This document shows positions 58,809-64,000 of a DNA stretch of 64,000 nt, piece after piece; within the stretch, counting starts at the first letter, position 1; the number at the start of each line of letters is the position of its first letter. The notes below the pieces were generated by a model, which saw only the letters and a list, made by a program, of their open reading frames with translations, did no database searches and was not told the DNA's origin. Both the position numbers and the translations under genes were made by a program. This stretch comes from Ralstonia pickettii (lineage in GTDB: Bacteria; Pseudomonadota; Gammaproteobacteria; Burkholderiales; Burkholderiaceae). The stretch is taken from assembly GCF_000607165.1 (NCBI RefSeq), contig NZ_JFZG01000024.1:496001-560000 (forward strand). Direction: 5' to 3'.

Positions 58809-58975
58809 CTGGCGGCAGCTCTAGTACATACCCAGACAAAACGGGCAGCACATCGCTACGTGCCGGATACGTCAGGCGCCTTCAATGCATTCCGTGGTCA
58901 AGACGCCGGGCCAACGCAAAGCAAAGCACCGGCAGGCCGCGCAGTCCCAAACCAACCGTTCAAAGGAAAACGATC

Positions 58976-59227
58976 ATGACCCGCAATCTCACCAAGACCC
59001 TCGCTGTTGTTGCTCTCGCTGTGGCCGCTGCCGGGGCCCAAGCCGCTTCGTCCATCGGTGCACGCGACCCGTACACCGAAGGCGCCCGCGCCGTGCAAAG
59101 CGCGGTGGATGCCTACACCGAGGGCGCGCGTTCGTCTGATGTCTATACGGACGGCGCGCGTGCCACCGACATCTACACCGATGGCGCCCGCAGCGCGAAT
59201 CCGTACTACGACGGTGCACACGCCTGA
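58976..59227 (+). CDS. Small exported protein with decapeptide YTDGAR repeats
   Basis: 83 residues. The signal peptide is cleaved near GAQAA. The mature part is five copies of a D-x-Y-(T/Y)-(D/E)-G-A-(R/H) unit at residues 31, 45, 55, 65 and 75; the last four are exactly ten residues apart. The ATG at 58976 has AAAGGAAAA upstream. It is followed after 60 bp by an exported alpha/beta hydrolase gene. The regular acidic/aromatic repeats suggest ligand, metal or surface binding; function unknown. Confidence 0.75.
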   Translation: MTRNLTKTLAVVALAVAAAGAQAASSIGARDPYTEGARAVQSAVDAYTEGARSSDVYTDGARATDIYTDGARSANPYYDGAHA

Positions 59228-60092: not shown

Positions 60093-61184
60093 TCAGTCGG
60101 GGCATTTGCCCATGGCGCGCAGGAATGTCTGCTGCGCGGTCAGCAACTCCCGGTAGGTGAGCGCGCGGTAGTCGAGTGCGTGGGCGCGCGCTACCTCGGC
60201 CACGCGTGCAGCCAATGCCGGATAGTGCCGGTGGCTGTACGTCGGGAAGAGGTGATGCGTCAGGTGCCAGTTCAAGCCGCCGAGCCAGTAGCCGATCCAC
60301 GCCGGTTGCGGTTGCCAGTCGCAGGCGGTGTGGAATGCATGCTCGTGCCACGTGTGCGGCAACTGGCCTGATTCGGGCGGCAGATAGAACGTCACGTCCG
60401 CCCAGTGCGTGCCCAGAATCAGTGCCACCAGCACACACGAGGCCAGCATCTGCCCCGCGAAGTAGCTGAACGCCACCCAGCCCCAGCCGAGGCCAAGTTG
60501 ATGTGCCACCCAGGCCGGTACCGCCACGGCAATGAGCAGGTGCAAGGTCTTGGCAGACAGGAACGTCGCCCAGCCGCGCAGGCCAGGTAACACGCGGTCT
60601 GTGGTCAGCGCCGTGAGGCCGAGCCGGTCCGACCAGTCGTAGATCCAGTTGATGTACGGCAACGACAGCGCGGCAATCAGCGGCCAGTAGCGATGCTGGT
60701 AACGGAACTGCGGATACCACGGCTGAAAAGGCGTCTGCCGCAGGAAGCGGTTTGCGGCGGTGTCCAGGTCGTAGTGTTCCACGTTGGCATGCGCGTGGTG
60801 ATAGTGCACATGGCGTACCGTCCAATAGGCCGGTTCGATGCCGAGCGGGATGGCGGTCACGCGTGTCATGAGGCGGTCCAACCATAGCCAGGGAGACAGC
60901 GCCCGGTGTGCGCCGTCGTGCAGCACGTTCATCGCCAGCAGCATCGCGATGAACGGAAAGGCCACATAGGCGAGCACGAAAATCATCGTGCTCTTGGCTG
61001 TCACCATCGCCCCATACAGCAGTGCGGAAATCACGACAAGGAAGGCGCCCTTGGCAATGAGCCTCGCATCGGCAAAGCGATGGTCGCCGTTTGCTTGCAG
61101 ATGATCGTGCGCGGCCTGGCGCAAATCCTCCGCCAGCGATGACGAGCGCGGTGAGGCGTAGCGAAGCTTAACGAGATTCGGCAT
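60093..61184 (-). CDS. Membrane fatty acid desaturase
   Basis: 363 residues. The di-iron His boxes are visible: HDGAH, HVHYHHAH and NWHLTHHLFP, between about four membrane helices. It would introduce a double bond or hydroxyl into an acyl chain at the inner membrane. The ATG at 61184 (MPNLVKLRYAS) overlaps the end of the sterol-desaturase gene by 17 bases. It is the last gene of a four-gene overlapping operon; the acyl substrate is unknown. Confidence 0.9.
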   Translation of the reverse strand: MPNLVKLRYASPRSSSLAEDLRQAAHDHLQANGDHRFADARLIAKGAFLVVISALLYGAMVTAKSTMIFVLAYVAFPFIAMLLAMNVLHDGAHRALSPWLWLDRLMTRVTAIPLGIEPAYWTVRHVHYHHAHANVEHYDLDTAANRFLRQTPFQPWYPQFRYQHRYWPLIAALSLPYINWIYDWSDRLGLTALTTDRVLPGLRGWATFLSAKTLHLLIAVAVPAWVAHQLGLGWGWVAFSYFAGQMLASCVLVALILGTHWADVTFYLPPESGQLPHTWHEHAFHTACDWQPQPAWIGYWLGGLNWHLTHHLFPTYSHRHYPALAARVAEVARAHALDYRALTYRELLTAQQTFLRAMGKCPD

Positions 61185-62298
61185 GCGGCGATGAAGAAAG
61201 CGGCGATTCGGCACGCAGTGCGTGCCACAGCCCGCAGGCAAGGCCATGTAGCCCCAGTGCAACGGCCAACGTGTCGGACAATGCATCGCCCGCACCGCAT
61301 ATGCCGATCATCAGCACGGGCAGTGCAAGCGCCAGCAGCGGCCACAGCCAGCGGCCCCAGACCCGTCCATCCGACAAGCCGCCCAGCGCAATCGTGAGCA
61401 GCAGGATGAGCGCGAACCAAACCGCTTGCCAATGCCCGGGCCACTGGCCATCGGTGCGCACGTAGTCGATCACCACGCCAAACAGCAGCACACCGCCGGT
61501 GGCGATCCAGCCGGCGGGCGTGGCGCGCGCATCGCGTTGCAGCAGCGGTGTACGCAACCCCATCCATTGCAATGCGGGCACCACGTTGGCCCAGAATGGG
61601 TTGTCGCTGTGGGTGGGCCTGTGCACGCCGTAGCGGATCGGCACGTCGGGCAGCGCGCGCTGATACGTGCCGAACAGCTTGTCCCAGAGGAGCAGCGTGC
61701 CGCCGAAATTGCGGTCGATGTATTCCGGGTTGCAGCCGTGATGTACGCGATGGTTGGCAGGCGTGACCATGAAGCGGTCCAGCACGCCCGAACGGCCCAC
61801 CAGCCCGCAGTGGTTGTAGAACTGCACCGAGTAATGCAGGCCGGACACCGCCACGAACATTTCCGGCGTGACACCCAGCAGCGCCAGCGGCACGAAAAAC
61901 GGCAGCGATGTCAGCGACGACAGCCACGCGTTACGTACGCCCAGCGACAGGTTGAAATGCTCGCCCTCGTGGTGCACCGCGTGGATCGCCCACAGAAAGC
62001 CCAGCTTATGGTGCATGCGGTGCAGCCAGTAGAAGCCCAGATCCCATGCGACAAAGGCGAAGGCCCAGCCCGCAATCGGATGCCAGCCATCCACCCAATG
62101 CAGGCTGGCATGGGCATACAGCCACGTGAAGCCGGCCACCTCCACGCCGCGGCACAGCCACATCAGCACGTGCCCAGAGTTCAGGTTGAGGATGACGTCG
62201 CGCCACGGCAGGGGCTGGCCGCGCCACCATTTGAGCGCAGCCAGTTCCAAGAGCACGCAGCCGAGCATCAATGCAAGCGGCAGAGCAAAGGCATTCAT
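61168..62298 (-). CDS. Sterol desaturase / fatty acid hydroxylase superfamily protein
   Basis: 376 residues. Di-iron His boxes HRMHH, HAVHHEGEHFN and HRVHHG lie in the N-terminal two thirds, and several more membrane helices form an extra C-terminal membrane domain. Such enzymes hydroxylate or desaturate lipid chains. The ATG at 62298 overlaps the PAP2 stop (ATGA); the longer open frame to 62874 runs entirely inside the PAP2 gene and is not used. It is coupled to the PAP2 gene upstream and overlaps the desaturase gene downstream. Confidence 0.9.
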   Translation of the reverse strand: MNAFALPLALMLGCVLLELAALKWWRGQPLPWRDVILNLNSGHVLMWLCRGVEVAGFTWLYAHASLHWVDGWHPIAGWAFAFVAWDLGFYWLHRMHHKLGFLWAIHAVHHEGEHFNLSLGVRNAWLSSLTSLPFFVPLALLGVTPEMFVAVSGLHYSVQFYNHCGLVGRSGVLDRFMVTPANHRVHHGCNPEYIDRNFGGTLLLWDKLFGTYQRALPDVPIRYGVHRPTHSDNPFWANVVPALQWMGLRTPLLQRDARATPAGWIATGGVLLFGVVIDYVRTDGQWPGHWQAVWFALILLLTIALGGLSDGRVWGRWLWPLLALALPVLMIGICGAGDALSDTLAVALGLHGLACGLWHALRAESPLSSSPHAESR

Positions 62299-62918
62299 GT
62301 CGACACCGGTTCGATTGAAAGCGTTGACGTGCGCCGCGCCAACCATAGACGGACAGCCGCGCCGCACAGCACGCCTACGGCCACGCCCGCCGATAGATCC
62401 AGTGCGACGTGCCGGCGCGTCTGGATCGTGGCGTACAGGATGCCCAGCCCCCAGGCCGCTGCAAGCACCGTGCGAATCGGCTTGCGCGCGTCCGCCAGCG
62501 CCCACACTGAGAGCAGCGTGAGCGCCCCGTGCAGCGAGGGAAGGCAGTTCTGGCTCGAATCCACGGCGATCAGCATGCGTTGCACGCTGGCCGGCAGCGA
62601 TGCATCCGCCAGCGGCGGGTAGTGCAGCGTGGTCGGCCACAGCAGAAACACCGCCCCGCTCATCAGCGCGCTCATCTGCATGGCGCGTTCCAGCCAGGGC
62701 AGGCGAGGCATGTCGGCCAGCAGATACGCCAACGGAATCAGCGCGAAGAACGACACGTACAGCCAGATGCCTGACGTGCTGAACGGAATCGCGCGGTCCA
62801 ACGCGGTTTCCGGCACAACCGTGCCCACGCCTTGCAGCACACCGCACAGACCATAGACGAGGCCCACCGAACACCAGCCCAGGGCCATATGACGCAGGCG
62901 TGCGATAAACGGGCTCAT
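62295..62918 (-). CDS. PAP2-family phosphatase / inositolphosphotransferase-like membrane protein
   Basis: 207 residues, about six membrane helices. The PAP2 motifs are partial but recognisable: NCLPSLHGALT (PSxH with the catalytic His) and RRHVALDLSAG (second His and Asp), the form seen in AUR1/inositolphosphotransferase-like enzymes. It would dephosphorylate a lipid or transfer a phospho-head group. The start at 62918 overlaps the stop of the adenylate-forming gene by four bases, and its own stop overlaps the hydroxylase start. Confidence 0.85.
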   Translation of the reverse strand: MSPFIARLRHMALGWCSVGLVYGLCGVLQGVGTVVPETALDRAIPFSTSGIWLYVSFFALIPLAYLLADMPRLPWLERAMQMSALMSGAVFLLWPTTLHYPPLADASLPASVQRMLIAVDSSQNCLPSLHGALTLLSVWALADARKPIRTVLAAAWGLGILYATIQTRRHVALDLSAGVAVGVLCGAAVRLWLARRTSTLSIEPVST

Positions 62919-64000
62919 CGCGCCGCCCCCGACGCCGCGAGCCGAACGATGCGGCGGCGCTTGGTGGTGAAGTCGGTGGCGATGCGCTCGGGCCTTGCGT
63001 GCCATGTCACGCGCGATGTGTCGACGCCCTGGCAGGCGAAGAGATCCGCCAGATGCGCCTGGCACGCGCGGGCAATGTCGGCGTCAGCAGGGTGGATGGA
63101 CAACGCCAGCGTGCACGCATCGGTTTGCACCAGGCGGTAGTCGGCATGCAGCGGCAGCGCCTGGGCCAGCGCCCGCGAACACACGTCCGCAAACAGCGTG
63201 ACGGCTCCGCCGCCAAGGGCGGGCAGGACAAGCGTATCGTCGCAGCGGCCTTCGATGCGCTCGATGGCCATGGCCGGATTGCCGCAGAGGCAGGCCCCAA
63301 GCGCGGGGTCGCGGCGGATGAGGATGTCATCCAGCCGGTAGCGCACGACGGGTTGCGTGCTGCGTGTGAAATCCGTGATGACGGGAACGAAGCGGCGCGC
63401 GTCCAGCCATTGCGGCTCGATGTGCACGTGCGCTTCGTTCAGATGCAGCGTGCCGTGCGGGCAGGTCGCACCCAGGAAACCTTCGGTGGCCTGATAGACC
63501 TCGCCGACGTTGCCGAAGGCCTGCGCAAGCAGCGCGCGGTCCATCGGCTCCAGCACTTCGGCGCCGGACAGCACCTGCACCGGTGCAATGTCGAGCCGGC
63601 CGGCCAGTTTCTCCATGGCAAGCGCACGCAGCACCTGCGCCGGCCCCACGATGATGGTCGGCTGCAATGCCTCCAGCGGCGCGCGGTGCGAGTCGAACGG
63701 TGCAAACAGATCGAAGAACGAGAACGTCAGCCACGGATTGCGCACGGCCGTGTACAGATTGCTGTTGGAGCGCAGGAACAGCGCGACGCGTTCGCCATGC
63801 AACAGGCCGCGCGGCAACAGCTTGGCGAGCAGGATGCCGGCCCACTGCGCGCGCTCGATCGGGCTGACGACGAAGACGCCGCGTCCTCCGGACGTGCCGG
63901 ACGACAAGCCCACCGAATAGACCCCGACCGTCGGCCGGAAATCGCGCGACTGCTCGGCCTGTTGCGCGCAGGCGAGCACGTCGGCCAGACGCAGGCCGGC
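62915..64000 (-). CDS. Putative adenylate-forming enzyme (F390 synthetase / phenylacetate-CoA ligase-like), N-terminus outside window
   Basis: At least 361 residues, open at the window edge (the frame continues upstream of 63979 to 64000). The phosphate-binding motif is SSGTSGGRGVF, and the later YQATEGFLGATC and VVRYRLDDILI match the ANL superfamily branch of F390 synthetases and phenylacetate-CoA ligases. It would activate a carboxylic acid as an acyl-adenylate. It leads, within this window, the overlapping lipid operon, so it probably activates an acyl or aryl acid for transfer to a lipid-like acceptor. Confidence 0.85.
   Translation of the reverse strand, partial: AGLRLADVLACAQQAEQSRDFRPTVGVYSVGLSSGTSGGRGVFVVSPIERAQWAGILLAKLLPRGLLHGERVALFLRSNSNLYTAVRNPWLTFSFFDLFAPFDSHRAPLEALQPTIIVGPAQVLRALAMEKLAGRLDIAPVQVLSGAEVLEPMDRALLAQAFGNVGEVYQATEGFLGATCPHGTLHLNEAHVHIEPQWLDARRFVPVITDFTRSTQPVVRYRLDDILIRRDPALGACLCGNPAMAIERIEGRCDDTLVLPALGGGAVTLFADVCSRALAQALPLHADYRLVQTDACTLALSIHPADADIARACQAHLADLFACQGVDTSRVTWHARPERIATDFTTKRRRIVRLAASGAAR

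What the first reader, a model, noticed from the sequence alone, without database searches (positions are those of the whole stretch)
60093..64000. Four-gene overlapping operon for an unknown lipid-like product
All four genes overlap: adenylate-forming enzyme and PAP2 by 4 bases, PAP2 and sterol-desaturase-type hydroxylase by 4, hydroxylase and desaturase by 17. Activation of an acid, phosphate removal or head-group transfer, and two different di-iron lipid oxidations make a coherent tailoring pathway, yet no known product has this set. It may extend beyond base 64000. The functional link is inferred from overlap and families.
Basis: partly seen in the sequence, partly recalled or inferred. 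Interest (0 to 1): 0.75.

Follow-up and report, generated by a model that had tools for sequence, protein, structure and literature searches.

The report
Seven-gene operon for unknown lipid
A tightly packed set of seven genes, shared by many bacteria including some Escherichia coli, very probably makes a fat-like molecule whose identity is still unknown.

Summary
The four overlapping genes are real, but they are the downstream end of a seven-gene operon that begins beyond the window. Upstream lie a ketosynthase III (KS3), an OleD-like reductase (RED), a lactonase-type MBL-fold hydrolase (MBL) and the start of the adenylate-forming enzyme (AMP, TIGR02304). All six junctions overlap (4, 13, 4, 4, 4, 17 nt). 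Of 106 loci with an AMP relative, 102 hold all four core genes and 73 also PAP2, hydroxylase and desaturase. Tails vary: glycosyltransferase, ATP-grasp, FemAB-like or DUF3419 genes elsewhere. The same seven genes lie between narGHJI and tRNA-Tyr in E. coli NRG 857C; 671 of 5426 complete E. coli genomes hold at least 80% of them and 4754 have no near match. Operon-less Ralstonia show an empty site or a deletion scar. KS3 groups with the chain-fusing ketosynthases MxnB and CorB. Best reading: a dedicated lipid pathway in which KS3 and RED build a long-chain hydroxy acid, AMP activates it and membrane enzymes tailor it. No product or reaction is shown. It is not the Ole pathway as defined. Eight literature searches found no paper on the operon.

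The parts
62915..64000 (-). AMP: adenylate-forming enzyme, TIGR02304 family ('F390 synthetase-related protein'); 3' part inside the window, start codon GTG at window-equivalent 64225
   Evidence: TIGR02304 484.8 bits vs cut-off 251.9; no Pfam match; distant PaaK similarity as a profile (4r1l, 5.5e-16). The three upstream genes MBL (65028-64222), RED (66032-65016) and KS3 (start taken as 67015, end 66029) lie outside the window
62295..62918 (-). PAP2-superfamily membrane protein, 207 aa
   Evidence: PF14378/PF01569 just below cut-off; motifs invariant in 13 of 13 relatives
61168..62298 (-). Fatty acid hydroxylase / 'sterol desaturase' family di-iron enzyme with C-terminal membrane extension, 376 aa
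   Evidence: PF04116 100.5 bits; eight motif histidines invariant in 15 of 15 relatives
60093..61184 (-). Fatty acid desaturase family di-iron enzyme, 363 aa, last gene of the operon
   Evidence: PF00487 84.5 bits; eight motif histidines invariant in 16 of 16 relatives

Best explanation
A seven-gene operon for a dedicated lipid-like metabolite. SHOWN by sequence: the gene set, overlapping junctions, intact active-site motifs, conservation as a block, exchangeable tails. INFERRED: KS3 condenses a (keto)acyl thioester with a second acyl chain; the OleD-like reductase RED turns the resulting beta-keto group into a hydroxyl; the lactonase-type MBL hydrolyses an ester, lactone or thioester intermediate to a free acid; AMP adenylates that acid and passes it to an acceptor; in this version of the operon PAP2, hydroxylase and desaturase finish head group and chains in the membrane, while in other genomes glycosyltransferases, ATP-grasp/FemAB-like enzymes or a DUF3419 enzyme do so. 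Odds of the parts: dedicated lipid-like biosynthetic operon 0.9; core builds and reduces a fused-chain beta-hydroxy (2-alkyl-3-hydroxy-type) acid 0.45; AMP activates the acid for transfer 0.5; the order of steps is a guess.
For: Seven genes with six overlapping junctions. Core of four in 102 of 106 loci and KS3, an OleD-like reductase and MBL beside AMP in all 19 genomes over the TIGR02304 cut-off in two samples of 398 and 150 genomes. KS3: best PDB matches MxnB and CorB; tree joins them at 98/96 apart from FabH; Cys-His-Asn triad in 43 of 43; a glutamine two residues before the OleA-glutamate position in 43 of 43 and in MxnB/CorB but in none of the 10 other KSIII rows. RED: OleD is the best NCBIfam model for the own protein and matches 19 of 19 aligned REDs. 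MBL: profile's best PDB matches are lactonases. Tail genes are all lipid- or head-group-type enzymes. All-or-none presence in E. coli and Ralstonia.
Against: No reaction or product is shown. RED is far below the OleD cut-off (152 vs 580 bits). Cluster KS3 is not resolved as one clade: MxnB/CorB fall among its rows at an open fork (one origin in 10% of bootstrap trees), and a FabH-like decarboxylating condensation is not excluded. L093 and L095 have the operon without a KS3 in the DNA held. An AMP relative without the core exists. PAP2, hydroxylase and desaturase are missing in 33 of 106 loci as a full set. No acyl carrier protein gene was found within the operon.
Confidence: 0.5

Rival explanations
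1. An Ole-like beta-lactone pathway: KS3, RED and AMP stand in for OleA, OleD and OleC; AMP closes a beta-lactone from a 2-alkyl-3-hydroxy acid and MBL is a lactonase for turnover or self-protection.
For: Same logic of ketosynthase III, OleD-like reductase and adenylate-forming enzyme; MBL resembles lactonases; oleACD clusters without oleB make beta-lactones (PMC7064751, passages).
Against: OleA's catalytic glutamate is Leu or Ile in 43 of 43 KS3. AMP has no Pfam match at all and is of the TIGR02304/PaaK-like kind. Three membrane tailoring enzymes have no place in a simple lactone pathway.
Confidence: 0.2
2. A pyrone- or lactone-type signal or antibiotic pathway: KS3 fuses two chains to an alpha-pyrone as MxnB/CorB do, and the other genes modify or degrade it.
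For: KS3 clade with MxnB/CorB, Leu/Ile at the position that is Val in both (Val94 also stated in PMC4578411); lactonase-type MBL.
Against: RED would remove the keto group that pyrone closure needs (inference). Integral-membrane hydroxylase and desaturase and GT21-type enzymes point to a membrane lipid rather than a diffusible signal. No regulator belongs to the unit.
Confidence: 0.15
3. The operon only modifies an existing lipid (phospholipid, lipid A, ornithine lipid or hopanoid).
For: Hydroxylase's best NCBIfam model is OlsE; PAP2 profile weakly matches LpxE (E 0.037); RED and the GT21-type protein match HpnA and HpnI.
Against: All far under cut-off: OlsE 77.5 vs 475, HpnA 106.5 vs 367.65, HpnI 79.3 vs 310 bits. 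E. coli carriers make neither ornithine lipids nor hopanoids (recalled). A ketosynthase and acid-activating enzyme would be superfluous.
Confidence: 0.1

Closest known systems
Ole pathway (OleA/OleB/OleC/OleD; olefins and beta-lactones)
   Same: Ketosynthase III, OleD-like reductase and an adenylate-forming enzyme in one operon
   Different: No OleA glutamate, AMP is TIGR02304 and not a PF00501-type OleC, no OleB gene in the operon, extra MBL and three membrane enzymes
MxnB/CorB chain-fusing ketosynthases (myxopyronin, corallopyronin)
   Same: KS3's nearest solved relatives, common clade 98/96, shared glutamine and no glutamate
   Different: No polyketide synthase beside it; a reductase and an acid-activating enzyme follow instead
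TIGR02304 'F390 synthetase-related protein'
   Same: AMP is a full member (484.8 vs cut-off 251.9 bits)
   Different: The family has a name but no assigned reaction in NCBIfam; the link to F390 is by name only
AHL-lactonase-type MBL hydrolases
   Same: Profile's best PDB matches; metal ligands invariant in 18 of 18
   Different: Far below every NCBIfam lactonase cut-off (best 49 vs 325 bits)

Membership tests
Ole pathway | OleA catalytic glutamate (E117 of X. campestris OleA, PMC4578411) | tested here: not met
   Leu in 36 and Ile in 7 of 43 KS3; Glu in both OleA controls
Ole pathway | OleD equivalog score | tested here: not met
   152.4 bits, cut-off 580; still the best model
Ole pathway | OleC, an AMP-binding (PF00501) enzyme (family membership recalled) | tested here: not met
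   AMP has no Pfam match at E 0.001; TIGR02304 instead
Ole pathway | OleB alpha/beta hydrolase in the operon | tested here: not met
   None among the seven; the neighbouring hydrolase also stands in two operon-less Ralstonia
MxnB/CorB-type chain-fusing ketosynthase | Common clade apart from FabH and OleA | tested here: met
   98/96 support; one clade of cluster KS3 alone not resolved
MxnB/CorB-type chain-fusing ketosynthase | Fuses two acyl chains in vitro | not testable with these tools
   Needs an enzyme assay
TIGR02304 | Score above the curated cut-off | tested here: met
   484.8 vs 251.9 bits
AHL-lactonase-type MBL | HxHxDH plus His, Asp, His metal ligands | tested here: met
   H101, H103, D105, H106, H193, D214, H264 invariant in 18 of 18
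AHL-lactonase-type MBL | Score above a curated lactonase cut-off | tested here: not met
   Best 49 vs 325 bits
Ornithine-lipid hydroxylase OlsE | Score above cut-off | tested here: not met
   77.5 vs 475 bits
Sphingolipid pathway | Serine palmitoyltransferase in the gene set | tested here: not met
   None of the seven genes is one; the rest of the genome was not searched

The most novel reading that the evidence does not exclude
The operon family makes an undescribed class of two-chain membrane lipid that resembles a ceramide in design: a chain-fusing ketosynthase and a reductase give a branched beta-hydroxy backbone, and exchangeable modules (hydroxylase, desaturase, PAP2_3-like transferase, GT21-type glycosyltransferase, DUF3419 or ATP-grasp/FemAB-like head-group enzymes) dress it. 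It would occur in about one in eight complete E. coli genomes and in many other bacteria not known for sphingolipids.
Probability: 0.2. Interest if true: 0.88.

Novelty: new variant of a known kind. Interest (0 to 1): 0.62.

Why it matters
A lipid-type operon found in Enterobacterales, Burkholderiales, Pseudomonas, Neisseriales, some Alphaproteobacteria and single Bacillota and Fusobacteriota plasmid records appears to have no assigned product, although 671 of 5426 complete E. coli genomes carry it. Natural presence or absence at one chromosomal site makes the product question directly testable by comparing lipid extracts. A fixed core with exchangeable tails would also give a function to TIGR02304, a family known only by name.

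Tried and rejected
Rejected: a four-gene operon (three more genes upstream). Rejected as defined families: Ole pathway, OlsE, hopanoid enzymes (see Membership tests and rivals). Rejected as members: the upstream Crp-type regulator and the downstream alpha/beta hydrolase; both stand side by side without the operon in two Ralstonia genomes, and the Crp gene lies near the operon only in the 11 Ralstonia or same-genus loci of 106.

Led nowhere: PDB profile searches for hydroxylase and desaturase (no match up to E 1) and PAP2 (LpxE at E 0.037 and an unrelated chain at 0.14); promoter and terminator scan (1 promoter-like site vs 1.0 expected, 1 terminator-like site vs 5.2 expected); GC profile (operon like its surroundings). 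The fold prediction of AMP never finished.

Literature: ten searches were made. Eight looked for the operon or its genes and found no paper on it; two (74, 75) were for MxnB/CorB and Ole background. The E. coli locus tags searched were guessed from memory. Unverified leads: a transposon table of a kiwifruit-canker Pseudomonas lists a 'Coenzyme F390 synthetase' mutant (PMC9823363, one passage) and P. aeruginosa ATCC 27853 has one absent from PAO1 (PMC5467263, one passage); neither was tied to this family. PMC2649909 (one passage) concerns ladderane lipids and an F390-synthetase-annotated gene of another organism.

Rows dropped: L073 was left out of the KS alignment because my gene caller fused it with a neighbour. 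The AMP tree used 59 of 106 loci; near-copies, and some short or partial loci, were left out by hand. Of 49 plasmid records with an AMP relative I opened six: five have the core (L183 by my own gene calls), one has not.
Full report
WHAT IS THERE. The window is G000:C24:496001-560000. The finding sits at its right end, so I fetched the next stretch (L006; L006 position + 59000 = window-equivalent). The four reported genes are real and their overlaps exactly as stated: AMP/PAP2 4 nt, PAP2/hydroxylase 4 nt, hydroxylase/desaturase 17 nt. Beyond base 64000 the operon goes on. AMP starts at a GTG at 64225 (436 aa). Upstream lie MBL (65028-64222, 268 aa, overlap 4), RED (66032-65016, 338 aa, overlap 13) and KS3 (start taken as ATG 67015, end 66029, 328 aa, overlap 4). 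All six junctions overlap, so there is no room for an acyl carrier protein gene between them.

WHAT THE GENES ARE. KS3 is a ketosynthase III (PF08541, PF08545). Its best PDB matches are MxnB (4v2p, 200 bits) and CorB (4yuc, 180 bits), ahead of the FabH-named chains. RED is an epimerase/3-beta-HSD-type reductase whose best NCBIfam model is OleD (152 bits, far below its cut-off of 580); all 19 aligned REDs match that model. MBL is a metallo-beta-lactamase-fold hydrolase; the best PDB matches of an 18-member profile are homoserine-lactone and pyridoxolactone hydrolases, and the metal ligands are invariant. AMP belongs to TIGR02304 and is distantly PaaK-like. PAP2, hydroxylase and desaturase are membrane-type enzymes with intact motifs.

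CONSERVATION. In an even sample of 398 genomes of the phylum 7 pass the TIGR02304 cut-off, and in 150 of the family 13 do (the window's genome is in both); 1 of 14 control genomes also passes. I looked at all 19 distinct genomes: each has a KS3, an OleD-like reductase and an MBL beside AMP. In 18 the order is KS3-RED-MBL-AMP; in L085 the reductase follows AMP. 13 of 19 also have PAP2, hydroxylase and desaturase. A scan of genome contigs gave 572 relatives of which the best 80 were kept, so these lean to close relatives. Over 106 loci (own locus, 20 G-handle loci, the 80, and 5 plasmid records; some genomes appear twice) 102 have all four core genes and 73 have PAP2, hydroxylase and desaturase. 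The four misses: L085 (reductase labelled as the second type), L093 and L095 (no KS3 by tblastn in the held DNA) and L113 (5.8-kb contig that begins near AMP). All counts are conditional on an AMP relative. An AMP relative without the core exists on a Pseudomonas megaplasmid.

TAILS. What follows the core is exchangeable. PAP2-hydroxylase-desaturase, with one or two desaturases, is commonest; in Paraburkholderia and Comamonas the desaturase stands first. In two Mangrovibacter, a Buttiauxella, a Leminorella and a Citrobacter the tail is a second OleD-like reductase, a GT21-family glycosyltransferase (PF13506; that GT21 includes ceramide glucosyltransferases is recalled; the nearest NCBIfam model is HpnI), a 189-aa protein and a GT28-like protein. 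Leclercia, Citrobacter gillenii and a Klebsiella combine both kinds. Other loci have ATP-grasp, FemAB-like (PF13480) or, in one Rhizobium plasmid, DUF3419 genes (G482). On a quick tree of 59 AMP proteins the presence of the hydroxylase needs at least 8 changes and that of GT21 at least 4; several long branches meet there. The pattern fits a core that makes a lipid scaffold and tails that dress it.

A UNIT THAT COMES AND GOES. In E. coli NRG 857C the same seven genes, in the same order, lie between narGHJI and two tRNA-Tyr genes. 672 of 5426 complete E. coli genomes have a near match to the operon, all at 90-95% identity to the Escherichia sp. query; 671 hold at least 80% of it, and 4754 have no near match at megablast sensitivity. 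With a query that includes narI, 5372 genomes match but again 671 hold most of it; of the 40 rows listed evenly down the ranking 5 hold everything and 35 only the 624 bases of narI. That these carriers are phylogroup B2 strains is recalled, not tested. In Ralstonia 7 of the 14 same-genus genomes listed pass the TIGR02304 cut-off and one more match is cut by a contig end. Of six operon-less ones I fetched five. In G508 and G474 the flanking hydrolase and the Crp gene stand directly side by side. In G446 and G415 only C-terminal pieces of the desaturase (from residue 310 of 363) and of the hydrolase (from residue 213 of 260) remain beside the Crp gene, which is what a deletion would leave. G492 has neither the operon nor a whole hydrolase. 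The Crp gene and the hydrolase are therefore neighbours, not members.

THE KETOSYNTHASE. I aligned 43 cluster KS3 with MxnB, CorB, two OleA from loci with OleD above cut-off, five FabH-like and three other KSIII (the FabH labels are mine). The Cys-His-Asn triad is kept in 43 of 43. The glutamate that OleA and PpyS use as base (PMC4578411, text parts 1 and 2 of 3) is Leu (36) or Ile (7); it is Val in MxnB and CorB. A glutamine two residues earlier is in 43 of 43 and in MxnB and CorB but in none of the other 10 rows. The tree joins KS3 and MxnB/CorB at 98/96, apart from FabH (99/99) and OleA (100/100). Against: MxnB/CorB fall among the cluster rows at an open fork, so cluster KS3 is not shown to be one clade. 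That MxnB and CorB join two beta-ketoacyl chains is from PMC4901931 (passages). By that standard KS3 more likely joins a beta-keto chain with a second chain than two simple acyl chains; a FabH-like condensation is not excluded.

HOW IT MOST LIKELY WORKS. Condensation by KS3, reduction by RED, release by MBL, activation by AMP, then tailoring in the membrane. Only parts list, motifs and co-inheritance are shown; every reaction is inferred from family membership. Rivals are a beta-lactone (Ole-like), a pyrone-type signal, or modification of a known lipid.

KNOWN OR NOT. The components carry family names in RefSeq. Eight searches of open-licence PubMed Central gave no paper on the operon; this library lacks most subscription journals, so absence there does not prove novelty. 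I rate it a new variant of a known kind (ketosynthase-started lipid pathways). It fails the tests for the Ole pathway, though it may work like one.

Noticed in passing
window 58973-59227, + strand (approximate): Small open frame with about ten-residue repeats of the type YTDGARA; Tandem Repeats Finder gives 59113-59187, period 30, 2.5 copies.
   Followed up: no
L213 6319-6558 and L214 6652-6978: Desaturase remnants beside the Crp gene in two operon-less Ralstonia, with a hydrolase remnant next to them: what a deletion of the operon would leave.
   Followed up: partly
L184 7902-9200: TIGR02304-annotated gene without ketosynthase, reductase or MBL in the annotated 17 kb of a Pseudomonas megaplasmid.
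   Followed up: no
L183 3267-10201: Fusobacterium version with another gene order: SDR, GT21-type glycosyltransferase, 215-aa protein, RED, MBL, AMP, KS3.
   Followed up: partly
L180 5087-10311 and L181 4848-11414: Bacillota plasmid versions with an ATP-grasp gene between KS3 and RED.
   Followed up: partly
E. coli records NZ_CP141085.1 and CP054248.1: AMP relatives on E. coli plasmids of 385 and 542 kb; in the first the whole operon matches, in the second AMP aligns in two pieces.
   Followed up: no
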